From an uncultured Pelagibacteraceae bacterium (GTDB lineage: Bacteria > Pseudomonadota > Alphaproteobacteria > Pelagibacterales > Pelagibacteraceae): 37,142 nucleotides of DNA. Under the pieces are notes generated by a model. It had not been told where the DNA came from and searched no databases. It saw only the letters and a list, made by a program, of their open reading frames with translations. Where the stretch lies: NCBI GenBank assembly GCA_902603665.1, contig CACKVV010000006.1:1-37142 (forward strand), given 5' to 3'. The position numbers and the translations under genes are program-made. Below, one piece after another: positions 18,959-35,790 of the stretch; position 1 is the stretch's first letter, and every line of letters begins with the position of its first letter.

Positions 18959-19972
18959 CTATTTTGGTAACCAACTTTTCCATTTATCAGGATTGTTGTC
19001 CAACCACTCGTTAACAACTTCTTTAACATCTCTTTTTTTGATATCTACTTCAACTAACATTTTAGCTTGGTCGATATTTTCTAATCTCATTCTTTCAAAA
19101 AAAGCTTTTGCATCAGCATGCTCTGCTTTAGCAAAAGTAGCAGGATTTCCATAGTTCATGGTATAGTCTTTGTCCCATCCAGTTGCAGGCCATCCTTTTG
19201 TACCACAAGTCTTCCAGTTATTTGCTTCGGTAAATGTATCACCTTCACAAGTTGCGTACTCAGGAAGTTGAACACCTACCATGTCAAACTCTCCAAAAAA
19301 CCAATGTGGTGACCATAGGTATAATAAGAAAGGTTCTTTTCTCATGTAAGCAGCTTTTGCCTCCGCAATTGCAGCAGCCTCTGTACCTAGCTCATCTGCT
19401 TGGAAATCAATTCCTAAAAGATCTAGTCTTTTTTGATCATGACAGTTCCAACCAGCTACTGGACAACCAATTAGTCTTCCTTTACCACCTGTCTCAATAG
19501 TTGCAAATTTAGCTTTATGTTTGTTTAGGTCTCTCCAAGTTTTGATACCTAATTCATCCGCAGCATATTTTGGAATCCAGTAATCTGACATACCTATAAT
19601 TCCAGTAGTTCCTAAAAGGTCAACTGTTCCATCGCCTTTGTAAGATTTTACTACTTTGCCATCATAAATTAAATCTTCATTAAACATTACATCATCTGCT
19701 TCAGCATAACTTGGCCAGCTCTCACAAGCAAAATCCAGCTCACCAGCTGCAATAGCTTCCCATAGACCAGTTCCTGAAGGGAATACTGTTTGTTTAATTT
19801 TATAACCCATTTCTCTTTCAAGAATTGCTACAGCCACTTCACAAGTAATTATTCCACCTGTCCAGTCAGCAATAGCAGCATGTAGTCTTTTAGCAGCATT
19901 TGCTGTTCCAAAACTACCTACCATAAGCACTAAAGATAAAAATAGTGCTGATATTGTTTTTGATAACTTCAT
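18959..19972 (-). CDS. Betaine/proline/TMAO-type ABC transporter substrate-binding protein (OpuAC/ProX/TmoX-like)
   Basis: Signal peptide; IADWTGGIITCEVAVAILEREMGYKIKQTVFPSGTGLWEAIAAGELDFACESWPSY; many Trp residues compatible with a quaternary-amine aromatic box. Confidence 0.9.
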   Translation of the reverse strand: MKLSKTISALFLSLVLMVGSFGTANAAKRLHAAIADWTGGIITCEVAVAILEREMGYKIKQTVFPSGTGLWEAIAAGELDFACESWPSYAEADDVMFNEDLIYDGKVVKSYKGDGTVDLLGTTGIIGMSDYWIPKYAADELGIKTWRDLNKHKAKFATIETGGKGRLIGCPVAGWNCHDQKRLDLLGIDFQADELGTEAAAIAEAKAAYMRKEPFLLYLWSPHWFFGEFDMVGVQLPEYATCEGDTFTEANNWKTCGTKGWPATGWDKDYTMNYGNPATFAKAEHADAKAFFERMRLENIDQAKMLVEVDIKKRDVKEVVNEWLDNNPDKWKSWLPK

Positions 19973-20072
19973 ATGTTTTATCCTCTTTTTTAAATTTAAA
20001 AGTTTATTCTAGCTCAAAAATTTAGTGAATGTAAACTGTATATAAATTCAATACCTAAGACATTTATAGATT

Positions 20073-20097
20073 AAAAATGCGGTCTATTGACCATTTT
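20073..20097 (-). terminator. Putative terminator after the GcvT-like gene
   Basis: On minus strand aaaatggtc-aata-gaccgcattttt: GGTC/GACC core extended by A/T pairs, T-run following. Confidence 0.5.
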
Positions 20098-21271
20098 ATG
20101 GTTTATTTGGGATTGTACGGTCTATTCCTTTAACAATTTTTTTTTCATGATCAAAAAATGGTAATTTAACAACATTACAGTCATGGATTGTGCCATTAGG
20201 TAATTCTAACTTTAACTTTTTTCCAGGCCATTCTTTCGGTTCATAAAATCTCACATATCCAATTCCAAGTTTTAATGTAGGTGAGGGTACACCCGCAGTT
20301 ATATGTCCAACAACATTATCACCTTCTATAACTTTACTTCCAGAAGTTGGTGTATCAGTTTCACAAGTAACACCAAACAAACATGTTCCTTTATTTTTTT
20401 TTGATAACGCTTCCCTTCCAATAAAATCACCTTTATCCATATTTACAAAAAATTCTAAACCAGCCTCAAAGGGTGTCATAGTTGTATCAATATCAGTTAA
20501 ATTCCCAAATATTCCTCCTTCAATTCTTCTTATAGTCATTGCACGAGAGGATGATAATTCCATCCCAAAAGGCTTTCCACATTCCATAAGGTGATCCCAA
20601 AGAGCTAAGTGATCTGTCTTATCCCCATCAGAATAAATTTCAAAACCAAGCTCGTTTGTGAAACCAGTTCTTGAAACGTATAAATCCTGTCCACCAAGTT
20701 TAAAAAAACCTGATCTAAAATATGGCATGCTTTCATCTATATTTCCTTTTGATGCAGCTTTCATAATATCAATTGAAGCAGGACCTTGAATTTGTAGAAC
20801 CCTTGACTTCGGATCTGATATTTTGACATCAAAATTTTCACTATGGGCTAATAACCAATCTTCAAACGGACCGTCAGCTTGTACATACCAAAATTTATTA
20901 TCATTAAATTTAAAAATTACTCCATCCATAAAAATCCCACCTTGAGGAGTGCACGCTAACGAATAATAACCTCTACCTTCTTTTATTGATGAAATTTTTC
21001 TTGTTAATATTTTTTCTAAAAAGGGAATTGCATCCTTACCTGAAATTTCCACTGGCTTTTCTGGAACATCAAAAATTAATGCTTTCTGTCTTAGTAGCCA
21101 ATATTTTTCGATTGGATCTTCACCTATTGATATTGGAAAATATCGTCCAGCATAAACGCCACGGACCATTTTAGGACTATTGGTTCTTTCAATGTAAGGA
21201 GACTCTTCAAATCTTCTTGCACTAATTTTAATGGTTTTGTTAAGATCAGATTCTTCTTGTAGATTTCCCAA
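20096..21271 (-). CDS. Stand-alone GcvT/DmdA-like aminomethyltransferase-fold protein (folate-dependent)
   Basis: GRGYYSLACTPQGGIFMDGVIFKF, SRTGFTNELGFEIYSDGD, TPFEAGLEFFVNMDKGDFIGREAL, VGHITAGVPSPTLKLGIGYV. Confidence 0.87.
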   Translation of the reverse strand: MGNLQEESDLNKTIKISARRFEESPYIERTNSPKMVRGVYAGRYFPISIGEDPIEKYWLLRQKALIFDVPEKPVEISGKDAIPFLEKILTRKISSIKEGRGYYSLACTPQGGIFMDGVIFKFNDNKFWYVQADGPFEDWLLAHSENFDVKISDPKSRVLQIQGPASIDIMKAASKGNIDESMPYFRSGFFKLGGQDLYVSRTGFTNELGFEIYSDGDKTDHLALWDHLMECGKPFGMELSSSRAMTIRRIEGGIFGNLTDIDTTMTPFEAGLEFFVNMDKGDFIGREALSKKNKGTCLFGVTCETDTPTSGSKVIEGDNVVGHITAGVPSPTLKLGIGYVRFYEPKEWPGKKLKLELPNGTIHDCNVVKLPFFDHEKKIVKGIDRTIPNKP

Positions 21272-21281
21272 TTTAATCTCT

Positions 21282-23612
21282 CTAATTTGTTTTTGCGTTA
21301 GACCTTAAAATTGTTGGTGGATCAAATGCAGTTAATTTTGGAAGCGTATCATTATATTTTTCGATCTCAATAAGACAAGAATGTGCAATTGGACCTTGTC
21401 CAAGTTTAGATGTGCCTTTGTCAGGTGTTAATACATTTGGATTACCATGTTTACACATACTTCCATCTTGAGTAGGATTTTCTGGATCATACCAAGCACC
21501 AGTACTCATTTGTACTACTCCCTGCATTACATCATCTGTGATTTTTATACCTGCCAAACAAGATCCTCTATCATTAAACATTTTAACTACATCTCCATTT
21601 TTTAAATTACGTTTTTTTGCATCTATAGGATTAATTTCAAGCGGCTCTCTCTCATTTATTTTAAATGACTTACTATACTTTCCATGATCCATTTGGCTGT
21701 GTAGTTTATTTTTCGGTTGATTTGATATTAAGTGAAGCGGATATTTTTTATTTACTTTGCCCAACCATTCACAAGGCTCGAACCATACTGGGTGTCCTGG
21801 ACAATCATCATAATTAAAGTCAGCCACTGTTTTCGAGAAAATTTCTATTTTACCACTTGGTGTATTAAGTGGATTTTTTTGAGGATCTTCTCTAAAATCT
21901 TTCAACATTATTGTTGGTTCTGTTGGATCGCTAATTTTAAACCATTTTTGCTCTCTGAACTTTTCATATTTAGGTATCTCAATATTTGCAGCCGCTGCTC
22001 TATCAAATGTTTGTTTATAAATCCATTCTTGCCACTCATCTTGACTTTTTCCCTCAGTAAATTTTTCCTCAATACCCATTTTTTTTGCAATATTTGCAAA
22101 AATTTCAAAATCATTTTTAGATTGTCCGTAAGGTTCTATTATTTTATCCATAGATACTACAAATGGATCCCTGGGCGTCATCATTATGTCTGTTCTTTCA
22201 AGAGGAGTAGTGCAAGGCAAAACGATATCAGATCTTTTTGCAAGCGTATTCCAGCACCATTCATTTGAAATTATTGTATCTGGTTTTTCCCAAGCTTTTA
22301 TTAGTCTATTTAAGTCCTGGTGATGGTGAAAAGGATTTCCACCAGCCCAATAAACTATTTTAGTATCTGGATAGACATATGAATTTCCATTAAAGTCAAA
22401 TTTTTTTCCTGGGTTCAGTAAAAGATCACTAATTCGTGCAACTGGTATAAAATTCTCTATTTTATTTTCAGTTTGTGGAAATGCTGCTCCAGGTAAAACT
22501 TTAAATTGACCACCTATAAAATTGGTAGCACTATAACCAAAACCAAACCCACCTCCTGGTAATCCAATTTGACCAATCATAGAAGCAAGCATAATTGCCA
22601 TCCAAAACGGTTGTTCACCATGATCTTGTCTTGTTAAGGACCAACTAATAGATATCATACTTCTTTTTTTTACAATTTTTATCGCTAGTTCTTTAATTTT
22701 AGATGCTGAAATTTCACAAATATTTGAAGCCCATTCAGCATTCTTTACTACGCCATCATTTTTTCCCAAAAGGTAAGGTAAAAATTTATCAAAGCCCTCC
22801 GTATATTTATTTAAGAAATTAGTATCACTATGTCCTTCAGAATAAATTGTATGAGCCATCCCTAACATTAAGGCAGTGTCTGTGTTAGGTCTTGCTGCAA
22901 TCCATTCACCACTAACCTCATTAATTAAATCTGATTTAAGTGGACTAACATTTATAAACTCTATTCCTGAATTTGCAGATTCAATTAAATTTTCCTTTTG
23001 ATAATGATGACCCGTCCCACCTTGAGAAATTTGACCATTTTTAATTGGTATTCCACCAAAACAGAGAAAAACTTCAGTATTTTTTTTTATAGACTCCCAA
23101 CTAGTGCATGTATCAAGATAAGCACGATAACTCCCAAGAATATGAGGGACCATCGCCTCTGCAGCAGCAAAACTGTATGTAAATTTTGATCTAGTATATC
23201 CACCAACACAATTTAAAAATCTGTGTAATTGGCTTTGGGCATGATGAAATCTTCCTGCACTGGCCCATCCATATGAACCGCCAAATATAGAGGAGTTCCC
23301 ATGTTTATCTTTTACTCTATTAATTTCGTTTGCTACAAGTTCCTCTGCTTTATCCCAACTGACTGCAATAAATGGTTCAACGCCTCTTAAATTATTGTTT
23401 GCCCCCGGACCTCTTTCAAGCCAACTTTTTCTAACCATTGGCTTATCGATACGTGTTGGTCCGTCTAGAACATCAACAATTCCTTGTGCAATAGGTGATG
23501 GGTCTTTATCATGTTCCCATCCAACAAGTTCCTCAACCTTACCATTTTTAACTTTAGCTCTATAAGTACCCCAATGGTTACTTGTTAAAGGCAGACCTTT
23601 ATTTTTGGTCAT
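21282..23612 (-). CDS. BisC-like cytoplasmic molybdopterin oxidoreductase (S-/N-oxide reductase family)
   Basis: GGSYGWASAGRFHHAQSQLHRFLNCVGGYTRSKFTYSFAAAEAMVPHILG; IVYWAGGNPFHHHQDLNRLIKAWEKPDTIISNE; CPGHPVWFEPCEWLG; LTAFDPP. No Tat signal and no N-terminal Fe-S Cys cluster. Confidence 0.92.
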   Translation of the reverse strand: MTKNKGLPLTSNHWGTYRAKVKNGKVEELVGWEHDKDPSPIAQGIVDVLDGPTRIDKPMVRKSWLERGPGANNNLRGVEPFIAVSWDKAEELVANEINRVKDKHGNSSIFGGSYGWASAGRFHHAQSQLHRFLNCVGGYTRSKFTYSFAAAEAMVPHILGSYRAYLDTCTSWESIKKNTEVFLCFGGIPIKNGQISQGGTGHHYQKENLIESANSGIEFINVSPLKSDLINEVSGEWIAARPNTDTALMLGMAHTIYSEGHSDTNFLNKYTEGFDKFLPYLLGKNDGVVKNAEWASNICEISASKIKELAIKIVKKRSMISISWSLTRQDHGEQPFWMAIMLASMIGQIGLPGGGFGFGYSATNFIGGQFKVLPGAAFPQTENKIENFIPVARISDLLLNPGKKFDFNGNSYVYPDTKIVYWAGGNPFHHHQDLNRLIKAWEKPDTIISNEWCWNTLAKRSDIVLPCTTPLERTDIMMTPRDPFVVSMDKIIEPYGQSKNDFEIFANIAKKMGIEEKFTEGKSQDEWQEWIYKQTFDRAAAANIEIPKYEKFREQKWFKISDPTEPTIMLKDFREDPQKNPLNTPSGKIEIFSKTVADFNYDDCPGHPVWFEPCEWLGKVNKKYPLHLISNQPKNKLHSQMDHGKYSKSFKINEREPLEINPIDAKKRNLKNGDVVKMFNDRGSCLAGIKITDDVMQGVVQMSTGAWYDPENPTQDGSMCKHGNPNVLTPDKGTSKLGQGPIAHSCLIEIEKYNDTLPKLTAFDPPTILRSNAKTN

Positions 23613-25736
23613 TTATTTTTTGGCTAAACCTAATGCTATTCTTTGTTTCTTTGTCCAAGCAAGGCTTATTCTATCGATTATAATTGCTAAAAGGACTATC
23701 CCAACACCTGCTGCCAATCCTCTTCCAGTATCAGATCTAGCTAATCCATTAAAAACCTCTAGACCTAGTCCTTTTCCACCTATAAGTGGAGTAACAATTT
23801 GCATTGCAAACGCCATAATTACAGTTTGATTAAAACCTATTACTAAACTTGGTATAGCTAAAGGAAATTTTACCTTATTAAGAGTTTGCAAAAGTGATCC
23901 ACCAAAAGATCTAGAAACTTCTGAATAGGTACCAGATACTTGAGTTAATCCTAGCGCGGTTAATCTTATTATAGGAGGTATAGAATATATTACTGTAGCC
24001 AGAACTGCAGAAACTATTCCACCTCCAAAAAACATTAAAACTGGAATTAAATAACAAAAATATGGAAGAGTTTGCATAGCATCTAGTACAACATCTTGAA
24101 TATTTTTAAATCTTTCGCTGTAAGAGGCTATTATACCAAGAGGCACTCCTATTATAAAACATAACAATACTGAGACTAAAACCGAGGATAACGTAATCAT
24201 TGATTGGGGCCATATTCCACAAGCTCCAATAAACAATAAAAGTATTATTGTAATAATTGCAAATCTTAATCCAACTGTAAAATATCCGATACTTGCAAAA
24301 ACTGCTAATGTATACCACCAAGGCGTATGAGTTAAAAAAATATCTAAAGGCCTTAACAAATTTAGATAAACAAATCCTCTTAATCCTTTAGAAAATGCAA
24401 TAAAGCCTGGATCAACTGTCAAAGACTCTACAGCATTAGAAATCGGTTGTCTTATTGATAACTTCCACTCTTTAGGAAAAGTTCCTATTTCATATAAATT
24501 CGAGTCTATGAATGAAATAATAAATAAAGCTATCAATGATGGAATCAAATAAAATCTTCCACTTATAAATTCGCCGATATCATTTGCAGTATTTTTATTG
24601 AAAATAGAAATTAAAATACTTGTGAAAGATGCAATAAAATTTGTAATTTTAATACATATAAAGTCTAAAATTTTGCTCGTAATATCTAAAGGCATTTCCA
24701 AAATTCTTGCAATTTTATATTTTTCTAAATTTTGAGGAAGTAAATGAAATTTTTTTACATTTGATGGAAGTTTATCTTCTTTATTACTACAAGCTTTACT
24801 AAATCTATCAAACATTATTGCCATAAATAAAATACAAAGACCACCTTCCATTGCCCATCCGACATCAAGTCTTCTTATTGCTTGCCATACTTGTCCACCA
24901 ATCCCTTCTGCACCAATAAAACATGCTAATACAACAAGAGCTAACGCCATCATAATAACTTGATTGATGCCCATCATAATACTTGGCAGTGACATAGGAA
25001 TTTTAATTTTTAATAATAATTGCAATTTACTTGAACCAAACGAAGTTGCAGACTCTACAGTTTCTTTTGAAACTTGTCGAATACCAGTGTTGGTTAATCG
25101 AATTATTGGTGGCATTGAATAAATCATTGTAGCCAATATTGCAGGTGCCCCCCCAATACCGAAAAAAAATAATGCAGGAAATAAATAAACAAAAGCGGGC
25201 ATAACCTGCATTGTGTCCAAAACAGGTTTCATAAAATTTTCAAATCTATCACTCTGAGAGCACGCTATTCCAAGTAATACTCCAAAAAATACACATAAGA
25301 AAACTGATAATCCCATCAAAGCAAGTGTTTGTAGAGATGCTTCCCACATTCCAACAGCTCCCCAAAAATAAATTACAAAGCATGAAAACAAGCCTAATCT
25401 TAGCCCACCAGCTATAAAACAAGGAAGAGTTAAAATTGCGGCGACTAAAACCCAAGGTGACTCAAGCAAAAAATCTTCTAAAAAATAATAACCAGCTTTA
25501 ATGTAATTTGCTAAAATTTTTGTAATCCATCTGTAATTTTTCTTTAGATAATCTTCTCCTTCATTTACCCATGCTGTAAAAGTAAATTCATCAGTTACAA
25601 CTTTAGGAAATTTTGATGGTCCGTCATTTTGACTTGAAAGAAATAAGGCTCCAATAAAAACTAATAATACCAATGAATATTTTATAATACTTTTTGTATT
25701 ATTTTTATTTTCTATTGTTTTTTGGACTACATCCAT
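23613..25736 (-). CDS. Fused double permease of a betaine/TMAO-type ABC transporter (ProW/OpuAB/TmoW-like)
   Basis: Two homologous permease domains: LDTMQVMPAFVYLFPALFFFGIGGAPAILATMIYSMPPIIRLT and LDAMQTLPYFCYLIPVLMFFGGGIVSAVLATVIYSIPPIIRLT. Confidence 0.92.
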   Translation of the reverse strand: MDVVQKTIENKNNTKSIIKYSLVLLVFIGALFLSSQNDGPSKFPKVVTDEFTFTAWVNEGEDYLKKNYRWITKILANYIKAGYYFLEDFLLESPWVLVAAILTLPCFIAGGLRLGLFSCFVIYFWGAVGMWEASLQTLALMGLSVFLCVFFGVLLGIACSQSDRFENFMKPVLDTMQVMPAFVYLFPALFFFGIGGAPAILATMIYSMPPIIRLTNTGIRQVSKETVESATSFGSSKLQLLLKIKIPMSLPSIMMGINQVIMMALALVVLACFIGAEGIGGQVWQAIRRLDVGWAMEGGLCILFMAIMFDRFSKACSNKEDKLPSNVKKFHLLPQNLEKYKIARILEMPLDITSKILDFICIKITNFIASFTSILISIFNKNTANDIGEFISGRFYLIPSLIALFIISFIDSNLYEIGTFPKEWKLSIRQPISNAVESLTVDPGFIAFSKGLRGFVYLNLLRPLDIFLTHTPWWYTLAVFASIGYFTVGLRFAIITIILLLFIGACGIWPQSMITLSSVLVSVLLCFIIGVPLGIIASYSERFKNIQDVVLDAMQTLPYFCYLIPVLMFFGGGIVSAVLATVIYSIPPIIRLTALGLTQVSGTYSEVSRSFGGSLLQTLNKVKFPLAIPSLVIGFNQTVIMAFAMQIVTPLIGGKGLGLEVFNGLARSDTGRGLAAGVGIVLLAIIIDRISLAWTKKQRIALGLAKK

Positions 25737-25813
25737 TGTATTTATAAGTTAAAATATATTATTTTACATTTAAAGGAAAATATTGTCTATTTTGATCTTA
25801 ATATAAAGAAATT

Positions 25814-26860
25814 ATGAGTGGTTCTTCAAAAATAACTTGTTCAAATATTTGGAAACTTTTTGGGCCTGATGAAAAAAGAGTAATGAAGGAACTAGATCCG
25901 AAATTATCAATTAAAGAAGTACAAGAGAAAACTGGACATGTAGTTGCCGTTAAAGATGTAAGTTTTTCAATTCAAAAAGGTGAAACTTTTGTTGTAATGG
26001 GTTTGTCAGGAAGCGGAAAATCAACATTAGTAAGATGCATTTCAAGACTAATAGAACCAACTTCAGGAACAGTCAAAATGGATGACGTAGATGTAACAAA
26101 GATGAGTAATAGAGAGCTACTAGATTTGAGAAGAAATAAAATGAGTATGGTTTTTCAACATTTTGGACTTTTTCCACATAGGACAGTTGTAGAAAATATT
26201 GGTTACGGTCTAGAAGTAAGGGGAAGCAAAAAAATTGAGAGAATTGAAAAATCAATGGAAGTTTTAAAAATGGTGGGTTTAGATGGATGGCAAAATAATT
26301 ATCCTCGAGAATTATCAGGCGGAATGCAACAACGGGTCGGTTTAGCAAGAGCATTGGCTGTAGATCCTGAAATTTTAATATTTGACGAGCCTTTCTCTGC
26401 ACTTGACCCACTCATAAGAAGAGAAATGCAAGACGAACTATTAAGTATTCAAGAAAAAGTAAAAAAAACTATGGTGTTTATTACTCACGACTTTTTAGAG
26501 GCAATCAAAATGGCAGATCATATTGCAATAATGAAAGATGGAGAAGTATCACAAATAGGAACACCCGAGGAAATTGTTGCAAATCCTAAGGATCAATATG
26601 TAAAAGATTTTTGTGAGGATGTACCAAAGTATAAAGTTTTAAGTGCAGGAAAAGTAATGAGAAAAGATTGTTGTGATGATACTAAAAAACTTTATTCATC
26701 TAAATCAGATTGCATTCCTGACAATTCCAAAATTGAAACTTTAATAGAAAAACTTGTTGATACAGACAAAAAATTTCCCGTTATTTGTTCAGAAACTGGA
26801 GACTTGCTAGGTGAAATTGACCGTTCTATTGTGTTGAAATCAATGAGATCTGCTAGTTAA
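25814..26860 (+). CDS. Betaine/TMAO-type ABC transporter ATP-binding protein (ProV/OpuAA/TmoV-like)
   Basis: Walker A GLSGSGKST, signature LSGGMQQRVGLARALA, Walker B ILIFDEPFSALDP, GHVVAVKDVSFSIQKGE. Confidence 0.94.
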   Translation: MSGSSKITCSNIWKLFGPDEKRVMKELDPKLSIKEVQEKTGHVVAVKDVSFSIQKGETFVVMGLSGSGKSTLVRCISRLIEPTSGTVKMDDVDVTKMSNRELLDLRRNKMSMVFQHFGLFPHRTVVENIGYGLEVRGSKKIERIEKSMEVLKMVGLDGWQNNYPRELSGGMQQRVGLARALAVDPEILIFDEPFSALDPLIRREMQDELLSIQEKVKKTMVFITHDFLEAIKMADHIAIMKDGEVSQIGTPEEIVANPKDQYVKDFCEDVPKYKVLSAGKVMRKDCCDDTKKLYSSKSDCIPDNSKIETLIEKLVDTDKKFPVICSETGDLLGEIDRSIVLKSMRSAS

Positions 26861-27785
26861 TTTGTTTATTACCTTTTATACTTTTCTCATTAACTTTATC
26901 TCTCCAAATAATTATCATACCAGCTAATATTATTAAAATAACGCCAGGAAAAAGTTGAGCCCAAGGTGCCTCATTAAAAAATATCCACCCCAATACAAAT
27001 GATGATGGTATTCCTAAATATTCAAATGATGCCATTTTACTTGCGGAGATTAATCTATAAGAATAAATAAATAAAATAGCAGCTGTACCACCAAGAATAC
27101 CAGTTAGTGTCATTAAAAAAAAGTCTTGAACATTTTTGATTTCAACATGGCCGCTGGTTACAAAAAATAATACTATTCCACCCAGTACATTAAAAATTAA
27201 TGAGTATAATTGTATTTTTGCAGTTGAATGACCTTCGGGAATAAATTTTAGTATTATAACACTAATCGCCCATGCAAATGCAGTCATAATTGGAAATATT
27301 GAATAAAAACTAAATATCTCACTGGTTGGTTTCATAATTAGAACAACACCAAAGAAACCTAAAAAAATTGCAGACCATCTATATTTACCAACTTTATCTT
27401 TTAAAAAAAATATAGATAAAATTACAATGAAAAATGGTGATGAAAATGTCAAAGTCATTGCTGTTGCAAACTCTAAATTTATTACAGAAATAAATACAAA
27501 TATATTCATTGATAAAAATGCCAAACCTCTAAAAAAACTTAAAATTAAAAATTTTTTGTCAATTTTTCGAAAAATTGAAAAATATTCTTTCGTGAATATT
27601 ATTAGAAGAATTAAAGGAATAATTCCCGCTGCATTTCTAAAAACAGCTAGTTGAATAACAGAATATTCATCACCAAGAAATTTTATCACAACCATGTATA
27701 AATCTATACAAAGTATAGCCATGAGCATCGTAGTCACAGCAAGATAGGTTTTCTTCACATCTACTTTTTCAGATGATAATTTCAT
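26853..27785 (-). CDS. EamA/DMT-family transporter
   Basis: About 10 hydrophobic segments; FRNAAGIIPLILL, SSPFFIVILSIFFLKDKVG, WIFFNEAPW. Confidence 0.87.
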   Translation of the reverse strand: MKLSSEKVDVKKTYLAVTTMLMAILCIDLYMVVIKFLGDEYSVIQLAVFRNAAGIIPLILLIIFTKEYFSIFRKIDKKFLILSFFRGLAFLSMNIFVFISVINLEFATAMTLTFSSPFFIVILSIFFLKDKVGKYRWSAIFLGFFGVVLIMKPTSEIFSFYSIFPIMTAFAWAISVIILKFIPEGHSTAKIQLYSLIFNVLGGIVLFFVTSGHVEIKNVQDFFLMTLTGILGGTAAILFIYSYRLISASKMASFEYLGIPSSFVLGWIFFNEAPWAQLFPGVILIILAGMIIIWRDKVNEKSIKGNKQIN

Positions 27786-27827
27786 TGTAAAAATCTTTTA
27801 AAAAATTGTATAAACCTTACAAATAAA

Positions 27828-29018
27828 ATGAGTAACTTTAAACTAAATGAATCTGATATCTTATCAAATCAAGATTGGACTTTCCCAACCAATATTGCAT
27901 ACGGACCCGGACGTTTAAAAGAAATTGGAACAATTTGTAATAACTTAAATATAAAAAATCCCTTGATAGTAACTGACAAGGGAAGTCCAAAGTTGCCATT
28001 TATTTCGAATTTACAAAGTTATTTGTCTAATTCTAATGTAAAATCAGGTTTATTTTTCGATATATCCCCTAATCCAAGAGAGGATGAAGTTTCAGTTGGT
28101 TGCAAAAAATTTAAAGATGGAAATCATGATGCAATTATAGCTATAGGTGGTGGAAGTGCTATGGATGGAGGTAAATTAATTTGTTTAACAGCAAATAATG
28201 ATGTTCCACTAAGAGATTTTGAGTTTGAATTAACTCCTCCAATAATAAGTAAAGATAACCCATTTCCAAAAATTATAACTATTCCTACTACAGCAGGAAC
28301 AGGAGCAGAAACAGAAATTACAGCTATGGTAACTTATTTAAAAGAGGGAATGAAATTTTGCATGTGGCACCCAGATGTTAGACCTTCATTAGCATTAATT
28401 GATCCAGAATTAACAATAGGACTACCCGCTAATCTAACAGCATGGACAGGTGTAGATGCATTAATTCATGGAATTGAAGGATACTGCGTTCCAGGATTTA
28501 ATCCTATGTGTGATGGAGCAGCATTAGAAGGTCTATCATTGATATCCAAATCACTTGTAACTGCCGTAGAACAACCAGATAGTATTTTAGCAAGAGGTGG
28601 AATGCATGTTGGATCTTGTTTAGCAGGAATATCATTTCTAAAAGGATTAGGTAATGTACATTCTATATCTCACGTGGTTGGTGCTGAGTACAATACGCAT
28701 CATGGTTTAACTAATGCAATAGTTTTACCCGTAGTTTTACGTTTCAATTTACCTGGTATGGAGGAAAAAGTTCAAAGAATGTCTGAAGCAATGCAATATA
28801 AAGATCATTCAGTTGATGCATTCATTAAAAATATGGAAGATTTGTTAGATAGAGTAAAAATCCCTAAAAGCTTAAGTGAATTAAATGTTCCTGAGGACAG
28901 TGCAGCAAGAATTGCAGAGAAAGCAATGAAAGATCAAGCGTATGGCCAAAACCCTAAGAAAGTCTCTTTTGAAGAAATGAAAGAAATGGTTTTACAAAGT
29001 ATAAAAAAAGCTCGTTAA
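27828..29018 (+). CDS. Iron-containing alcohol dehydrogenase
   Basis: IAYGPGRLKEIG, IIAIGGGSAMDGGK, TIPTTAGTGAE, GNVHSISHVVGAEYNTHHGLTNAIVLP. Confidence 0.93.
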   Translation: MSNFKLNESDILSNQDWTFPTNIAYGPGRLKEIGTICNNLNIKNPLIVTDKGSPKLPFISNLQSYLSNSNVKSGLFFDISPNPREDEVSVGCKKFKDGNHDAIIAIGGGSAMDGGKLICLTANNDVPLRDFEFELTPPIISKDNPFPKIITIPTTAGTGAETEITAMVTYLKEGMKFCMWHPDVRPSLALIDPELTIGLPANLTAWTGVDALIHGIEGYCVPGFNPMCDGAALEGLSLISKSLVTAVEQPDSILARGGMHVGSCLAGISFLKGLGNVHSISHVVGAEYNTHHGLTNAIVLPVVLRFNLPGMEEKVQRMSEAMQYKDHSVDAFIKNMEDLLDRVKIPKSLSELNVPEDSAARIAEKAMKDQAYGQNPKKVSFEEMKEMVLQSIKKAR

Positions 29019-29024
29019 GCTTTA

Positions 29025-30440
29025 ATGCTTGATAATCTTTCAGTTGAAGAAATTCAAAAAAATATAAATAACCGACAAATCTCAATTAAAGAAGTCTTAG
29101 TTTACTACTTAGAAAGAATAGAAAAATTTAATAAAAATATTAATGCTATAGTTTTACAAAAAGATAGAGAATTATTAATTAAGGAAGCAGAACAGAAAGA
29201 TAATTTAAAAAATAGCAAAAAAATTTTAAATGGTTTGCCTATAGCAGTAAAAGATCTTTCTGATGTTGTTGGTTTAAAAACTACATATGGTTATGAAGGA
29301 TCAAAAAATAATAGCCCAAAAAAAAATTCACTATTTGTAGATAAACTAATAGATAATGGAGCAATCATAATTGGTAAGACAAATACTGCAGAATTAGGTG
29401 TTGGTGGACATACGACTAACCGTCTTTTTGGACCTACATCTAATGTTTATAACTTTGAAAAGTCTGCAGCAGGATCGAGTGGTGGAGCAAGTTCAGCGGT
29501 TGCAGCTGGATTACTTCCATTTGCAGATGGCACTGATCAAATGGGATCTTGTAGAGGTCCAGCAGCATATGCAAATATTTATGGATATAGACCAACTCCT
29601 GGTTTGATTGCTGCTGAACGAACATATCAAAATTTTGATATACCTATTTTAACCACACCGGGATGTTTTGCAAAAACACCAAATGATATGGCATTTTTAA
29701 TTGACGCTATTACTGGAAGTCATCCATTAGATAATATTTCATTTGATTTAAATAGTTCATTTAGAGACGCAAAGTTTTCAGAAAAAGAATTTTCTAATTT
29801 AAAGATTGGTTGGCTATCTGATATGAATAATAAATATATTATTGAAAAATCTATTTTAGATATATGTGAAAAAAAATTAAAAGATTTAGAAAAAAATAAT
29901 CTTGAGATTGAATATTTAAAGCCAAACTTAGATACTGATACTTTATGGAACAGCTGGACTACCTTTAGATCTAAAAGTATTTATCAAGATACATTAAGTA
30001 TGGGCATTAAAGATATTAATTCTATGACATTTCAAGTCATTTGGGAATATAATAAAGGTAAAGAAATTCAATCTGATAATTTAAAATTAGCTTTTGAACA
30101 AAAAAATAGATGTACTGAGCAAGTTAATGAAATTTTTGATAAATTTGATTTTTTAGCTTTACCTTCTGCTCAATTGTTTCCTTTTGATAAAAGTATTCAA
30201 TTTCCAAGTAAAATTAACGAGACCAGTCTCGATACGTATCATAGATGGCTAGAAGTTTTTATTATATCAAGCCTCTTGGAGCTACCAACTATAACTATTC
30301 CTGTTGGTTTTAATGAAAATGGTTTACCAATGGGAATGCAGATTATTGGTAAAAATAAAGATGACTTAAAACTATTTGCGTTTGCTAAAACTTTTGAGGA
30401 AATTTACAATAATTCAAATCACAAACCAAAATTAAACTAA
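29025..30440 (+). CDS. Amidase signature family protein
   Basis: GLPIAVKDLSDVVG (Lys), AAGSSGGASSAVAAG, FADGTDQMGSCRGPAAY. Confidence 0.92.
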   Translation: MLDNLSVEEIQKNINNRQISIKEVLVYYLERIEKFNKNINAIVLQKDRELLIKEAEQKDNLKNSKKILNGLPIAVKDLSDVVGLKTTYGYEGSKNNSPKKNSLFVDKLIDNGAIIIGKTNTAELGVGGHTTNRLFGPTSNVYNFEKSAAGSSGGASSAVAAGLLPFADGTDQMGSCRGPAAYANIYGYRPTPGLIAAERTYQNFDIPILTTPGCFAKTPNDMAFLIDAITGSHPLDNISFDLNSSFRDAKFSEKEFSNLKIGWLSDMNNKYIIEKSILDICEKKLKDLEKNNLEIEYLKPNLDTDTLWNSWTTFRSKSIYQDTLSMGIKDINSMTFQVIWEYNKGKEIQSDNLKLAFEQKNRCTEQVNEIFDKFDFLALPSAQLFPFDKSIQFPSKINETSLDTYHRWLEVFIISSLLELPTITIPVGFNENGLPMGMQIIGKNKDDLKLFAFAKTFEEIYNNSNHKPKLN

Positions 30441-31330
30441 TGGTAAGACATCGGCATCATTTTAAAATAGCTTTTATGTTAGCAATTGCAGCTGGATCGT
30501 GGGGAGTTTATTGGCTTCCTCAAAGATATTTAGAAAATGGTGGCTTAACTGGGGGGTGGGGAACTATTTCTCAAATGATGATAGGTATATTATTACTAAC
30601 CCCAATTTCTTTGTGGAGAAAATTTAAAGGTCGTTCGTCAGGATTAGAAATACCATTTGTTGGTTTTTTAACTGGAAGTGGTTTTATATGTTATGCCTTA
30701 AGTTTTTTATTAACAGATGTAGTACGTGCATTAATCATGTTTTACATGATACCAGTTTGGACAACAATTTTTGAAATAATTTTTTTAAAGAAAAGACCTG
30801 GCTTAGAAAGAGTTTTAACATTGGGTCTTGCTCTTGGAGGCTTATGGATTGTTTTTAGTAAATCAAATATTATACCACTACCTCAAAATGCTGGAGACTG
30901 GTTGGCGTTAGTAGGAGGTGTTCTTTTTGGTGGTGGGCTTATACGTTTGGAAATTACTAAAACAGATGGAGTATTTCCTGTAATATTTTCTTTTTTCTTT
31001 TATGGAACAATATTTAATATTTTCGCTGGTTATATTTTAAAAGATTATCTAGGACCTGTACCACCTGCAGAGGCTTTTCTCTCTATGTTTACTTTTTTGG
31101 TTCTTATTTCAGTATTTTATTTTATTCCTACGGGCGTAATAATAATGTGGTCACCATCAGTTCTAGGTGCTGGACTTTGTGCAATATTATATTTAAGTGA
31201 AATTGTTGTTGGGGTTGTGTCTGCTGGTATTTTAACGGATGAACCGTTTGGATGGCGAGAAATTGTTGGTAGTTCAATGATTGTGTTAGGGGGTGTGCTT
31301 GCAGTAGTGTTAGCCCCAAAAGAATCATAG
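30440..31330 (+). CDS. EamA/DMT-family transporter
   Basis: About 10 hydrophobic segments; start overlaps the amidase stop (taATG); WRKFKGRSSGLEIPFVGFLTGSGFICYALSF. Confidence 0.82.
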   Translation: MVRHRHHFKIAFMLAIAAGSWGVYWLPQRYLENGGLTGGWGTISQMMIGILLLTPISLWRKFKGRSSGLEIPFVGFLTGSGFICYALSFLLTDVVRALIMFYMIPVWTTIFEIIFLKKRPGLERVLTLGLALGGLWIVFSKSNIIPLPQNAGDWLALVGGVLFGGGLIRLEITKTDGVFPVIFSFFFYGTIFNIFAGYILKDYLGPVPPAEAFLSMFTFLVLISVFYFIPTGVIIMWSPSVLGAGLCAILYLSEIVVGVVSAGILTDEPFGWREIVGSSMIVLGGVLAVVLAPKES

Positions 31331-31333
31331 TAA

Positions 31334-32326
31334 ATGCTTTTCAAAGAAAAGCTAAAATCAAAAAATAAAATATTTTTAGATGGAGGAAACGGTTCTGAAA
31401 TAGCAAAACTTGGAGGCGACATGAGCCCTGCATTTTCTGCGTTAGCAACTTTAACATCACCAGATATCGTAATTAAAGTTCATGAAAATTTTATTGATGC
31501 TGGCTGTGATATTATTACTGCTAATACTTTTGCAACAAATAAACATAATTTGGAAAGTTTAAACAAAGGTGATCAAGTACATAAATTTATCTCAGACTCA
31601 GTTAAGCTTTCTAGAAAAGCGATATCAAATACTGGAAAAGAAAATAAAATTGCAGTAGCGGGTAGCCTATCAAACTTTTTTCCTCTAAAGGAAAATGAGT
31701 TTGTTCCAAATCCAGAATTTGTACCAACCTTTAAAAAAGAGGAAGAAAATTACAAAGAAGCTGCAAAAATTTTAAAAGAATCTGGAGCAGATTTATTGGT
31801 TCTAGAAATGCTTTTGGATGTAGACCACTCTAAAATTTTATTGAATGCAGCTCTCGAGACTGGTTTACCAGTATGGGTTGGATTGAGTTGTTGCGATAGT
31901 AAATTTGATAATACTGTTATTGGAAGAAATTTTAGAGCAGAGAAAGAAAAATCACTGATTTACGATGAGAATAAGTATAAAGACCAACCTAAATACTTAC
32001 CTGAAGATAAAATAATTTTACTAGAGGATATAATAAAATCACTTACGAGTTTAGGAGGTGATGTTTATGGAATAATGCACACTTGGTTTCAAGATAGCAT
32101 TGGTGGTTTAAAAATATTGAAGAATAATTGGAAAGGACCAATCATGTTTTATCCTGAAATACATAAATTTGACACTAATACACATAAAGCAATAATAACT
32201 ATGACAGAGGAAGAATTTTCAAACTCAATTTTAGAATTAATAGATGATCAAATTCAAATTGTTGGAGGCTGTTGTGGAGTTAACGACAAGCATTTAAAAA
32301 GACTTATACAATCTATATCTGAGTAA
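31334..32326 (+). CDS. Homocysteine S-methyltransferase family protein, paralog 1
   Basis: LDGGNGSEIAKLGGD, DAGCDIITANTFATNKHNL, IVGGCCGVNDKHL. Confidence 0.87.
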   Translation: MLFKEKLKSKNKIFLDGGNGSEIAKLGGDMSPAFSALATLTSPDIVIKVHENFIDAGCDIITANTFATNKHNLESLNKGDQVHKFISDSVKLSRKAISNTGKENKIAVAGSLSNFFPLKENEFVPNPEFVPTFKKEEENYKEAAKILKESGADLLVLEMLLDVDHSKILLNAALETGLPVWVGLSCCDSKFDNTVIGRNFRAEKEKSLIYDENKYKDQPKYLPEDKIILLEDIIKSLTSLGGDVYGIMHTWFQDSIGGLKILKNNWKGPIMFYPEIHKFDTNTHKAIITMTEEEFSNSILELIDDQIQIVGGCCGVNDKHLKRLIQSISE

Positions 32327-32443
32327 ATTAATTAATATTCAAAAAGTTTTAAAATTTAAAATTAAATTTTTTTATTGAAGTCAATTTAGTTACTATGATA
32401 GTTTTAAATATTAATAAATAAGATTATATCATTATATATTTAA

Positions 32444-33304
32444 ATGAGTTCAAATAAACTTAGAGTACGAAGAAGCTTTATATTTACACCGGGTTTAAAA
32501 CCAGAGATGTTTCCAAAAGCAATCGAGTCCGGGGCTGACATGGTTTGTATAGAATTAGAGGATGGTATAGCGCTTAAGGATAAGAATGATGCAAGAAATA
32601 ATACACTTAACGCTTTAAAAACGCTCAAGATTAAAGAAGATGTAGAATTAGTTGTAAGAGTTAATTGTCAAAGAACAAAACATGGATTGTTAGATTTAGA
32701 GGCCTTTGCCTCAAGTAAGATAAATATTGGTGCAATAATGCTTCCCAAAGTAAAAACACCAGATGAAATAAAATTTATCGATGATCTGCTTACAGATTGT
32801 AATTTAGATACAGACCTTCATGTAATAATGGAAACGAACGAGGCTTTAGAATGTATTTATGACATTGCGCATGCAAGCAAAAGAACGGTGGCATTGTATT
32901 TTGGAGGTGTTGATATGGCAGCTGAACTTAGATGTGAGCATAAATGGGAAAATTTAGTATACGCAAGATCAAAACTAGTTCATGCAGGCGCAAGTATTGG
33001 GGTTGATGTAATAGATGTTCCATACTTAGATTTAGAAAATATGGATGGAATGAAAAAAGAGGCAGAGCTTGCAAAAAATCTTGGTTTTACAGGCAAAGGC
33101 TCTATCCATCCTAAACAGATAGGAATTTTAAATGAGGTTTTTACACCTTCAAAAGAAGAAATTAGTCATGCAAAAAGAATTGTAGATCAATTTAACGAAT
33201 CAAATACAGGCTTGGTTGTAATTGACGGCAAACTTATAGAAAAACCTGTTTTAAGAGAAATGCAAAGAAAAATATTAATTGCAGAAAAAATAAACAAAAA
33301 TTAA
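32444..33304 (+). CDS. CitE / HpcH-HpaI family CoA-ester lyase (malyl-CoA lyase-like)
   Basis: RRSFIFTPGLKPEMFPKAIESGADMVCIELEDGIALKDKNDAR, LYFGGVDMAAELR, GFTGKGSIHPKQI. Confidence 0.92.
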   Translation: MSSNKLRVRRSFIFTPGLKPEMFPKAIESGADMVCIELEDGIALKDKNDARNNTLNALKTLKIKEDVELVVRVNCQRTKHGLLDLEAFASSKINIGAIMLPKVKTPDEIKFIDDLLTDCNLDTDLHVIMETNEALECIYDIAHASKRTVALYFGGVDMAAELRCEHKWENLVYARSKLVHAGASIGVDVIDVPYLDLENMDGMKKEAELAKNLGFTGKGSIHPKQIGILNEVFTPSKEEISHAKRIVDQFNESNTGLVVIDGKLIEKPVLREMQRKILIAEKINKN

Positions 33305-33307
33305 TAA

Positions 33308-34474
33308 TTAAAAATTATTATTAACTATTTCGTCCATCATATTAATCATATCTTTCTTATAATTTTCATCAGTTCCAGAATCTGTTTCAATTACAGAGAA
33401 ATAGCTTGCAACAACACCATTATTTAAATTTATTGCTAAAAATTGACCTCCAAGACCTGAATGGCCAATCCAATTACCACATTTCATTGTTGAATTTGAG
33501 TACTCTAAAAATTTATTTTTTGATAATTCCATATATTTAGTCCCTTTATTTTTTAATGTTTCATCTAAGAAAAATTCAGAACCGATTTTCCTATTTAATA
33601 CCCCATGCCCTTTTCTTGAAAAAAGAAGACCATATCTCAAAAAATCTCTAGAGATTAAACATCCGCCTCCCGAAATCCAAGGCATACTAAATCTATCTGT
33701 CCCCATATACATGGCATCTTCAAAACCTGCTGCTTCTACAGCCTCCAACAACCATTCTTTAAGTTTTTTTCCGCTTACTTTTTCAACTAATAAACCCATT
33801 ACATCTGTATTTGCTGATTTATAGTGAGATAAATCTGAAGTATTTTTTAAATCTTGATCTTTCAAAGATTTAATTGAATTTAAAAATTCTTCCTGGGTTA
33901 CTTTATAATTTAAATCATCGGGTAGTCTCCAACCACAAACTGGTTCATGTAAAAATGAAGAAGTATATGGATCTGTATAATCTTCGCTATAAGCATTTTG
34001 AATATTCATATCTAAAACATCTTGAATCGTTGCAGATGCATACCCAGAGCCAATATTAGGTAAATATTCTGAAACTTTTTTATTTAATTCAATAATTTTT
34101 TTTTCAACAAGTTCTCCAATAAATAAATTAATAAACATTTTTGTGATAGACATTATTGTTTGTGGGGTATTTTCGTTAAAATCATCTGCATATTTTTCAT
34201 ATAGAATGTCTTGATCTTTGCCTACCAACAATGAGCAAAAATATTTATGATTTATCATTTTATTTACTGATGGAATTTTTTCTATCTTGTCATTATATTT
34301 TTGGTTTAATTTTAATACATGATCAGATCTTAGAAGTAGACCATATCTGTTGATTTTATGTAAATTTCGGTAACCCTCTCTTCTTGTTTCCGGCAAATAC
34401 CATTTTGGTTTATTATCTCTTATAATTTTAAGCGTAGGATTTAATTCACTAATTATTTTTTTATCTTTTGTCAT
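33308..34474 (-). CDS. Serine hydrolase (class C beta-lactamase family)
   Basis: SITK (SxxK) motif, YKSANTDVMGLLVEKVSGK, WIGHSGLGGQFLAINL. Confidence 0.87.
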   Translation of the reverse strand: MTKDKKIISELNPTLKIIRDNKPKWYLPETRREGYRNLHKINRYGLLLRSDHVLKLNQKYNDKIEKIPSVNKMINHKYFCSLLVGKDQDILYEKYADDFNENTPQTIMSITKMFINLFIGELVEKKIIELNKKVSEYLPNIGSGYASATIQDVLDMNIQNAYSEDYTDPYTSSFLHEPVCGWRLPDDLNYKVTQEEFLNSIKSLKDQDLKNTSDLSHYKSANTDVMGLLVEKVSGKKLKEWLLEAVEAAGFEDAMYMGTDRFSMPWISGGGCLISRDFLRYGLLFSRKGHGVLNRKIGSEFFLDETLKNKGTKYMELSKNKFLEYSNSTMKCGNWIGHSGLGGQFLAINLNNGVVASYFSVIETDSGTDENYKKDMINMMDEIVNNNF

Positions 34475-34484
34475 TTCTTAAATT

Positions 34485-35402
34485 TTATTTTAAAACTGAG
34501 ATTGCACTTATTTTATCGGGACCAACACCACAACATCCACCTATAATCTGAGCTCCATTAGATATCCAATTTTTCGCTTCCTCTAAATATTTAGTCGGGG
34601 ATATATCATTAATTAATTTCCAATGAGGCTTTTCAAAGTAACCATTATTTGGATATGCACCTACAATTCCTTTGTGAACTTTTTTTAAAATTTTAACCGC
34701 TTCACCTGTAACTTTGATATCTGAATGTGCAACTAAAATTGGTCCTTCATGCATTTTACTAAATTTAGATAGGGAATTTTCTAAAGTATCGTAAAATTTT
34801 GCTTTTGAATTAGTTATACTCTCCTGATAGCCGTGCATTAATATATTTTCGTCTTCATTTATTGCACAAGAAATAGATAGCCAGATAGGTAATTTAACAT
34901 TTTTTGAGCACTCAATAATATTTTCAACCGTTCTATCCTTTGACGTCATGGCTTCTAAAATGATTAGGTCTACACCTGCTTCTTTTAAAATTTTTAAATG
35001 TTCATTAAAACCAGGTTTAATATCCTCTTCTGATAGTTTATCCCAACTGCCTGAAGTTGAAACTGATCCTGCAACAGCTATTTCTCTTTTAGAATGATTA
35101 GCAGCCTTTAAAGCTAATTTTACACTTTCTTCATTCCAAGCTTTCGTAAATTGATCATATCCGTACTCTTTCATTGATATCGGTGTAATAGCGTAGGTAT
35201 TTGAAGTAATGATATCTGCACCAGCATTAATATATTTTTCATGTACCTGAAGCATTTTATCCGGGTCATCTATTGCACATTTTCCAGCCCACAGATCTTT
35301 ATCCATCTTCGCGCCTGAACTTTCTAACTCTCCTCCATTTCCACCATCTAAAATAACTACACCATTAGCTTTTAATTTTTTCTCTACAAGATTGTATGAC
35401 AT
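34485..35402 (-). CDS. Homocysteine S-methyltransferase family protein, paralog 2
   Basis: VILDGGNGGELESSGAKM, GADIITSNTYAITP, IIGGCCGVGPDKI. Confidence 0.88.
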   Translation of the reverse strand: MSYNLVEKKLKANGVVILDGGNGGELESSGAKMDKDLWAGKCAIDDPDKMLQVHEKYINAGADIITSNTYAITPISMKEYGYDQFTKAWNEESVKLALKAANHSKREIAVAGSVSTSGSWDKLSEEDIKPGFNEHLKILKEAGVDLIILEAMTSKDRTVENIIECSKNVKLPIWLSISCAINEDENILMHGYQESITNSKAKFYDTLENSLSKFSKMHEGPILVAHSDIKVTGEAVKILKKVHKGIVGAYPNNGYFEKPHWKLINDISPTKYLEEAKNWISNGAQIIGGCCGVGPDKISAISVLK

Positions 35403-35405
35403 TTA

Positions 35406-35789
35406 TTATTGATTATTTGTAAAAGCGCAGATTTTATTTCCATCTAAGTCACGAATGTAAGAATAGTAAACTCCAGAGCCTTCGGGTCTCTCACCACCAG
35501 ATCCTTCGCTAGCACCTCCCAACTTAATTCCAACATCATGAAACTTATCAACCAATTCTCTTGAACTTGTTTGAAATGAAATTTGAGATCCATTACCAAC
35601 TGTTGCTTTTTCTTTGTTAAAAGGTTTTGTGACGTAAAATTCTATTTTTCCGTTGCTATTTTTTTGAGAATATCCAGCGCACACTTCATCTTTTTCAGTT
35701 CTTTCTAAATCTAAAACTTCTAACAATTCATCATAAAACTTAATGGACTGATCTAAATTGTTTGTGCCAACCATAACATAGCCAATCAT
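35406..35789 (-). CDS. VOC/glyoxalase family protein
   Basis: MIGYVMVGTNNLDQSIKFYDELLEVL...GVYYSYIRDLDGNKICAF. Confidence 0.88.
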   Translation of the reverse strand: MIGYVMVGTNNLDQSIKFYDELLEVLDLERTEKDEVCAGYSQKNSNGKIEFYVTKPFNKEKATVGNGSQISFQTSSRELVDKFHDVGIKLGGASEGSGGERPEGSGVYYSYIRDLDGNKICAFTNNQ

Positions 35790-35790
35790 A

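What the first reader, a model, noticed from the sequence alone, without database searches (positions are those of the whole stretch)
18959..26860. Osmolyte ABC transporter locus built around a cytoplasmic BisC-like molybdoenzyme and a GcvT/DmdA-like methyltransferase: candidate reductive-demethylation pathway
Seen: minus-strand fused double permease, BisC-like enzyme and GcvT-like gene are tightly packed (0 and 9 nt gaps), with the binding protein after a 123-nt gap and the ATPase divergent. Established: ProX/TmoX-type systems import quaternary amines, TMAO and DMSP; BisC/DorA enzymes reduce S- or N-oxides; DmdA and the GcvT part of Tdm pass methyl/C1 units to tetrahydrofolate. Inference: an oxidised methylated zwitterion (for example DMSOP, another sulfoxide, or an N-oxide) is imported, reduced in the cytoplasm by the Mo enzyme, then demethylated to THF by the GcvT-like protein. 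An oxic streamlined bacterium keeping a roughly 2.3-kb molybdoenzyme beside its own transporter suggests a dedicated substrate. I cannot say whether this gene order is already described.
Basis: partly seen in the sequence, partly recalled or inferred. Interest (0 to 1): 0.8.

Follow-up and report, generated by a model that had tools for sequence, protein, structure and literature searches.

The report
Ocean-bacterium sulfoxide-reductase/methyltransferase gene pair
Some SAR11 ocean bacteria carry a two-gene cassette, a molybdenum enzyme that probably strips oxygen from small sulfur compounds and a partner that probably moves methyl groups to folate, inside a gene cluster for using algal osmolytes; it may supply a missing route for sulfur osmolytes that the known enzymes do not handle.

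Summary
The window is a whole contig of a SAR11 genome. Its permease, cytoplasmic BisC/DorA-type molybdoenzyme (MoE), GcvT/DmdA-like methyltransferase, TmoX-like binding protein and divergent ATPase lie where stated.

The neighbourhood is conserved. MoE and GcvT are adjacent in 63 of 65 informative loci; the two exceptions have MoE elsewhere in the genome. The locus is larger than reported (18959-36975): it adds Fe-alcohol dehydrogenase, betaine-aldehyde-type dehydrogenase, CitE-like lyase, VOC protein and two homocysteine methyltransferases. The MoE-GcvT pair is an optional cassette: 102 of 399 sampled same-genus genomes carry the locus marker, 14 have MoE.

New evidence on function: all 33 MoE-less core loci with permease next to binding-protein gene carry an extra MsrA (methyl-sulfoxide reductase) gene; none of the MoE-positive genomes searched has it. 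This points to a methyl sulfoxide, not an N-oxide, as MoE's substrate. In Rhodobacteraceae and SAR116 the pair sits with a choline-dehydrogenase paralogue, suggesting a sulfur choline/betaine analogue.

The GcvT-like protein fails the DmdA, Tdm and GcvT cut-offs, and the genome has true DmdA. Order of steps, exact substrate and dedicated transporter are not shown. No activity was tested.

The parts
21282..23612 (-). MoE: cytoplasmic BisC/DorA-type molybdoenzyme (776 aa), probable methyl-sulfoxide reductase
   Evidence: Pfam Molybdopterin/Molydop_binding; TIGR00509 977.6 bits, curated cut-off 1017.55; aligns from mature residue 9 of DorA with Y114, W116, S147 in register, invariant in 18 homologues
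20096..21271 (-). GcvT/DmdA-like THF methyltransferase (391 aa), cassette partner of MoE
   Evidence: GCV_T + GCV_T_C; below cut-off for DmdA 167/410, Tdm 180/1100, GcvT 138/236; orthologues 68-99% identical; AlphaFold model equally close to T-protein and DmdA, TM about 0.78
23613..25736 (-). Fused double permease of a betaine-type ABC importer
   Evidence: two BPD_transp_1 stretches; TIGR03416 430 bits, cut-off 363
18959..19972 (-). TmoX-like periplasmic binding protein; four cage tryptophans kept, TMAO-binding Glu replaced by Ser129
   Evidence: OpuAC; best solved relative 4xz6 TmoX; alignment A2; TmoX residues from PMC8918994
25814..26860 (+). ATPase of the importer (ProV type)
   Evidence: TIGR01186 359 bits over cut-off 326.6
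27828..29018 (+). Fe-containing alcohol dehydrogenase; directly downstream of MoE-GcvT in Rhodobacteraceae
   Evidence: Fe-ADH Pfam; L066, L070, L077
26853..27785 (-). EamA-family transporter, conserved in the SAR11 locus
29025..30440 (+). Amidase-family hydrolase of the SAR11 core locus
30440..31330 (+). second EamA-family transporter of the core locus
31334..32326 (+). homocysteine S-methyltransferase homologue 1 (PF02574)
32444..33304 (+). CitE/RipC-like C-C lyase; also near GcvT in Rhodobacteraceae L076, L077, L085
33308..34474 (-). beta-lactamase-fold (PF00144) hydrolase; left side of the slot that holds MsrA in MoE-less loci
34485..35402 (-). homocysteine S-methyltransferase homologue 2; right side of the MsrA slot
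35406..35789 (-). VOC/glyoxalase-like protein; a VOC-like protein also lies between BetA-like and GcvT in SAR116 L120
35791..36975 (-). betaine-aldehyde-dehydrogenase-like ALDH, cut by the contig end
   Evidence: TIGR01804 365 bits, cut-off 668.6

Best explanation
MoE and the GcvT-like protein are a two-gene cassette that adds a sulfur branch to a SAR11 osmolyte-catabolism locus. The importer brings in methylated onium zwitterions. Alcohol and aldehyde dehydrogenases can turn choline-like alcohols into betaine-like acids. The GcvT-like enzyme transfers a methyl group from a methylated sulfur zwitterion (S-oxidised or not) to tetrahydrofolate. MoE, using cytoplasmic reductant, reduces a methyl sulfoxide, S-configured by analogy, to the thioether, so that it can enter thioether/methanethiol catabolism. 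The preferred order is demethylation, then sulfoxide reduction. Likely substrates are DMSOP or dimethylsulfonioacetate/sulfocholine-type compounds and their oxides. Shown by sequence: gene set, conservation, active-site residues, MsrA exchange, presence of DmdA elsewhere. Inferred: both reactions, their order and the substrate.
For: (1) MoE-GcvT adjacency in 63 of 65 informative loci, and MoE present elsewhere in the other two genomes. (2) MsrA exchange: all 33 MoE-less core loci with permease next to SBP have an MsrA gene over its curated cut-off (148.5 vs 108.1 bits for the G004 copy) between the hydrolase and homocysteine-methyltransferase genes; all 8 MoE loci with that slot visible on the same contig lack it; MoE genomes searched have at most a 48-58% housekeeping-type MsrA, never the 84-100% locus copy. 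The swap needs 4 changes on the ATPase tree and on the Fe-ADH tree, 3 of them forced by strong branches on the latter. (3) Tyr114, Trp116 and Ser147 of DMSO reductase are in register and invariant. (4) Related Mo enzymes (MtsZ, DorA, BisC) reduce S-configured sulfoxides (PMC5122715), the stereochemistry in MsrA's name. (5) In two further core loci the same slot holds a DddQ-type DMSP lyase. (6) In Rhodobacteraceae and SAR116 the cassette lies near a BetA paralogue scoring 634-669 bits against a 732 cut-off, and three of the four genomes with such a BetA-like gene on the MoE contig also hold a BetA over the cut-off elsewhere; BetI and BADH-like genes are there too. (7) The genome already has DmdA, so the partner probably has another substrate.
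Against: No activity, binding or expression data. The exchange rests on about 4 events in SAR11 lineages whose locus genes look mosaic. MsrA-bearing loci lack the GcvT-like gene too, so the exchange does not explain GcvT. Fe-ADH, BetA-like and ALDH families also fit ordinary choline catabolism. MsrA could serve free methionine sulfoxide next to homocysteine methyltransferases. Several MoE-positive assemblies are incomplete, so absence of MsrA is weaker there.
Confidence: 0.5

Rival explanations
1. One reading: an S-oxidised zwitterion such as DMSOP is imported, reduced by MoE to the sulfonium (DMSP), and the GcvT-like enzyme demethylates that.
For: Cassette in an onium-importer locus; a DddQ-type lyase in the same slot of two related loci; HTCC1062 uses DMSOP as carbon and sulfur source (PMC10686828).
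Against: The genome already has DmdA for DMSP and the GcvT-like protein is far below the DmdA cut-off. MsrA normally attacks sulfoxides, not sulfoxonium ions, so the exchange argues against a sulfoxonium substrate (inference from general knowledge). No alcohol or aldehyde step would be needed.
Confidence: 0.15
2. Methionine-sulfoxide scavenging or repair: MoE, like MtsZ/BisC, reduces free methionine sulfoxide or biotin sulfoxide; MsrA does the same in other loci; the GcvT-like gene serves an unrelated methyl donor.
For: MtsZ and BisC precedent (PMC5122715); homocysteine methyltransferases next to the MsrA slot; SAR11 lack MetE and MetH and depend on outside methionine sources (PMC12478193).
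Against: MoE is tied to GcvT, not to methionine genes, in SAR11 and Rhodobacteraceae; most genomes searched also have a separate housekeeping-type MsrA.
Confidence: 0.15
3. N-oxide pathway: MoE reduces an amine N-oxide (TMAO or a choline-like N-oxide) and GcvT captures a C1 unit, in parallel with Tdm.
For: SBP family is TmoX-like; the Rhodobacteraceae SBP keeps the position of TmoX Glu131; the best-scoring NCBIfam model for the GcvT-like protein is Tdm, 180 bits against a 1100 cut-off.
Against: Window SBP has Ser129 where TMAO-binding TmoX needs Glu (PMC8918994); MsrA exchange; Tyr114, reported (from memory) to favour DMSO over TMAO, is invariant; a Tdm-sized GcvT-domain protein (779 aa) is elsewhere in the genome.
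Confidence: 0.1
4. Ordinary choline/carnitine-to-glycine-betaine locus: the GcvT-like enzyme demethylates glycine betaine, and MoE is a general oxidative-damage repair enzyme.
For: gamma-butyrobetaine dioxygenase, carnitine dehydrogenase and BKACE near some loci; BetA/BetI/BADH-like genes in Rhodobacteraceae.
Against: Dimethylglycine/sarcosine-dehydrogenase-type genes are present in MoE genomes as in MoE-less ones, so no betaine step is visibly missing; does not explain why MoE and GcvT travel together.
Confidence: 0.1

Closest known systems
BisC/DorA/MtsZ S-/N-oxide reductases (TIGR00509)
   Same: Same family, Mo-ligand serine and Tyr114/Trp116; cytoplasmic and without leader, like BisC
   Different: Just below the family cut-off (977.6 vs 1017.6); genetically tied to a GcvT-like methyltransferase and an onium-osmolyte locus, which 16 informative relatives of 44-58% identity are not
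DmdA, DMSP demethylase
   Same: GcvT family, methyl transfer to THF expected
   Different: 167 bits vs 410 cut-off; the same genome has true DmdA
Tdm, TMAO demethylase
   Same: GcvT-type domain handling C1 from a methylated oxide
   Different: Only the GcvT part is matched (profile positions 389-762 of 763); no fused demethylase domain
TmoXWV / betaine-type ABC importers
   Same: TmoX-like SBP with four aromatic-cage tryptophans; ProV-type ATPase
   Different: TMAO-coordinating Glu replaced by Ser129; fused double permease; transporter exists without the cassette
Roseobacter choline operon (betIAB + choline importer)
   Same: Homologous regulator, dehydrogenases and importer around the cassette in Rhodobacteraceae
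   Different: BetA and ALDH are below the equivalog cut-offs; a BetA over the cut-off exists elsewhere in six of the eight genomes searched

Membership tests
BisC/DorA-type S-/N-oxide reductase | Mo-ligand Ser147 with Tyr114 and Trp116 | tested here: met
   in register with 1eu1 and invariant in 18 homologues
BisC/DorA-type S-/N-oxide reductase | TIGR00509 curated cut-off | tested here: not met
   977.6 vs 1017.55 bits, marginal
BisC (cytoplasmic form) | no leader peptide before the catalytic domain | tested here: met
   query residue 6 aligns with residue 6 of mature 1dms; precursor-numbered chains start the match at residue 48
BisC/DorA-type S-/N-oxide reductase | reduction of an S- or N-oxide | not testable with these tools
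   needs enzyme assay; indirect support from MsrA exchange
DmdA | NF009133 cut-off 410 | tested here: not met
   167 bits; DmdA-scoring genes found elsewhere in the genome, 569 and 521 bits
Tdm | N-terminal demethylase domain fused to GcvT; cut-off 1100 | tested here: not met
   180 bits, C-terminal part of the profile only
GcvT (glycine cleavage T-protein) | TIGR00528 cut-off 235.85 | tested here: not met
   137.6 bits
TmoX | Glu131 that binds the TMAO oxygen (PMC8918994) | tested here: not met
   Ser129, invariant in 13 homologues
TmoX / betaine SBP | aromatic box of tryptophans | tested here: met
   W37, W86, W175, W220 opposite TmoX W55, W102, W177, W222
DmpX (DMSP-specific SBP) | closer to DmpX than to TmoX | tested here: inconclusive
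   7yle, taken from memory to be DmpX, 37 bits vs 85 for TmoX
MsrA (replacement gene) | TIGR00401 cut-off 108.1 and GCFW motif | tested here: met
   148.5 bits for the G004 copy; motif in the sequence printed

The most novel reading that the evidence does not exclude
The cassette is an unrecognised demethylation pathway for a marine sulfur zwitterion that DmdA is not known to handle (dimethylsulfonioacetate, DMSOP or a sulfocholine-type compound): a GcvT-like demethylase coupled to a cytoplasmic Mo methyl-sulfoxide reductase, exchangeable in evolution with a dedicated MsrA.
Probability: 0.35. Interest if true: 0.75.

Novelty: new variant of a known kind. Interest (0 to 1): 0.6.

Why it matters
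Two published questions lack enzymes: PMC10686828 asks whether DMSOP is demethylated, and PMC7221440 reports methanethiol from dimethylsulfonioacetate by an unrecognised demethylation route that DmdA does not serve. A two-gene cassette in part of the ocean's most abundant bacteria, also in Rhodobacteraceae and SAR116, is a concrete candidate for either. If true it would place Mo-dependent sulfoxide reduction in aerobic organosulfur catabolism rather than in anaerobic respiration.

Tried and rejected
Homarine/trigonelline degradation, suggested by the amidase: no pyridine-ring genes seen, and the key 2026 paper was not held. MoE-GcvT as a substitute for dimethylglycine dehydrogenase or BHMT: those gene families are present in MoE genomes too. 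GcvT-like protein as the genome's DmdA: rejected. Fold comparison to separate T-protein from DmdA: uninformative. Plasmid records: no orthologue above 60% identity. No paper describing the MoE-GcvT pair was found in seven searches, but subscription papers and preprints are not in the library.
Full report
What is there. The window is the whole of contig C6 of an incomplete SAR11 genome (740 kb, 57.9% complete). Its relatives in the genome scan are Pelagibacteraceae single-cell genomes.

The locus is larger. To the right follow EamA, Fe-ADH, amidase, a second EamA, homocysteine methyltransferase 1, a CitE-like lyase, a beta-lactamase-fold hydrolase, homocysteine methyltransferase 2, a VOC protein and a betaine-aldehyde-type ALDH. 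Fe-ADH, ALDH and CitE-like genes flank MoE-GcvT in Rhodobacteraceae, and a VOC-like protein does so in SAR116, so they probably belong to the same pathway. This is an inference from gene neighbourhood.

Conservation. GcvT orthologues were found in 67 loci at 68-99% identity (L022-L088). In 63 MoE is next to GcvT; two contigs begin inside GcvT; the last two genomes, SAR116 MED-G116 and an Albidovulum bin, have MoE elsewhere. MoE homologues of lower identity are common in the class, but 16 informative loci of 44-58% identity had no such GcvT nearby. On the MoE tree the paired members form one supported clade plus one separate pairing in SAR116.

An optional cassette. In the same genus 14 of 399 sampled genomes have MoE, but 102 of 399 have the hydrolase that marks the core locus. 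I fetched MoE-less core loci. In 33 of them the permease is directly next to the binding-protein gene and the slot is visible, and all 33 have a 150-aa MsrA gene next to the hydrolase, on the side of homocysteine methyltransferase 2; the G004 copy passes the MsrA cut-off. In all 8 MoE loci with the slot visible on the same contig there is no MsrA (window, L199, L200, L203, L204, L205, G408, G217). Across the genomes, MoE-positive ones have at most a housekeeping-type MsrA at 48-58%, never the locus copy at 84-100%. The two states switch about four times on gene trees of the ATPase and Fe-ADH, three of them forced by strong branches on the latter. So the exclusion is real in the data, but it is a handful of events, not 41 independent ones.

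Meaning. Two unrelated enzymes replacing each other suggests a shared reaction. MsrA reduces methyl sulfoxides; the Mo relatives MtsZ, DorA and BisC reduce S-configured sulfoxides (PMC5122715). MoE keeps Tyr114, Trp116 and Ser147 and has no leader, so it is taken to be cytoplasmic. In two further core loci, with neither MoE nor locus MsrA seen, the slot holds a cupin most like DddQ DMSP lyases. These facts favour sulfur chemistry.

The partner. The GcvT-like protein is below the cut-offs for DmdA, Tdm and GcvT, and its genome has two DmdA-scoring genes and a Tdm-sized protein. Its model is equally close to T-proteins and DmdA. Methyl or C1 transfer to THF is therefore inferred from the family only.

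Substrate. In Rhodobacteraceae and SAR116 the cassette is near BetA-like and BetI-like genes. In four of the eight genomes searched, BetA-like genes of 634-669 bits lie on the same contig as MoE; in a fifth, G429, a BetA-like gene lies on a contig that carries a MoE fragment. Six of the eight genomes have a BetA over the 732 cut-off; two (G426 and G429) showed none. A choline or betaine analogue is suggested. Dimethylsulfonioacetate is made by algae and is not recognised by DmdA (PMC7221440); whether DMSOP is demethylated is an open question (PMC10686828). Neither is shown here.

Transporter. The binding protein resembles TmoX with the tryptophan box but has Ser129 in place of the Glu that binds TMAO. 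It is present at up to 94% identity without MoE, so it is not dedicated to the cassette.

Limits. Many genomes are incomplete single-cell assemblies. Nothing was assayed. Statements on MsrA chemistry toward sulfoxonium ions and on Tyr114 preference rest on general knowledge.

Noticed in passing
G208:C5 about 15.8-23.4 kb (L152, L153); G296:C7 about 30-38.8 kb (L148): Within about 25 kb of MoE lies a cluster with a second DmdA-scoring gene, a GcvT-like gene of about 400 aa, a TPP enzyme, a thiolase and an FMN alpha-hydroxyacid dehydrogenase homologue: possibly another demethylation pathway.
   Followed up: partly
L162:6011-6613 (-), L165:3634-4311 (+): DddQ-like DMSP lyase cupins in the slot otherwise held by MsrA; both contigs end before the MoE position, so MoE status there is unseen except by whole-assembly search.
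   Followed up: partly
L080:12363-13487; G217 (L155); L167-L197: gamma-Butyrobetaine dioxygenase, carnitine dehydrogenase and BKACE genes near the same SAR11 importer: a likely carnitine branch of the hub.
   Followed up: partly
L089-L094: Related SAR11 loci with the same importer type, Fe-ADH and EamA but without MoE; they carry a different GcvT family protein (31-33% identical) and a homocysteine methyltransferase.
   Followed up: partly
L120:9777-15577 (SAR116 MED-G116): Second, divergent MoE-GcvT pair (57% and 49%) directly beside a VOC-like protein and a BetA-like gene.
   Followed up: partly
G004, G110, G141, G256 and other MsrA-type genomes: A third MsrA paralogue of about 195-203 aa (37-39% identical to the locus MsrA) occurs in the MsrA-type genomes searched but in none of the 14 same-genus MoE-positive ones; a similar one is seen in some other MoE genomes such as G446, G452 and G453.
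   Followed up: no
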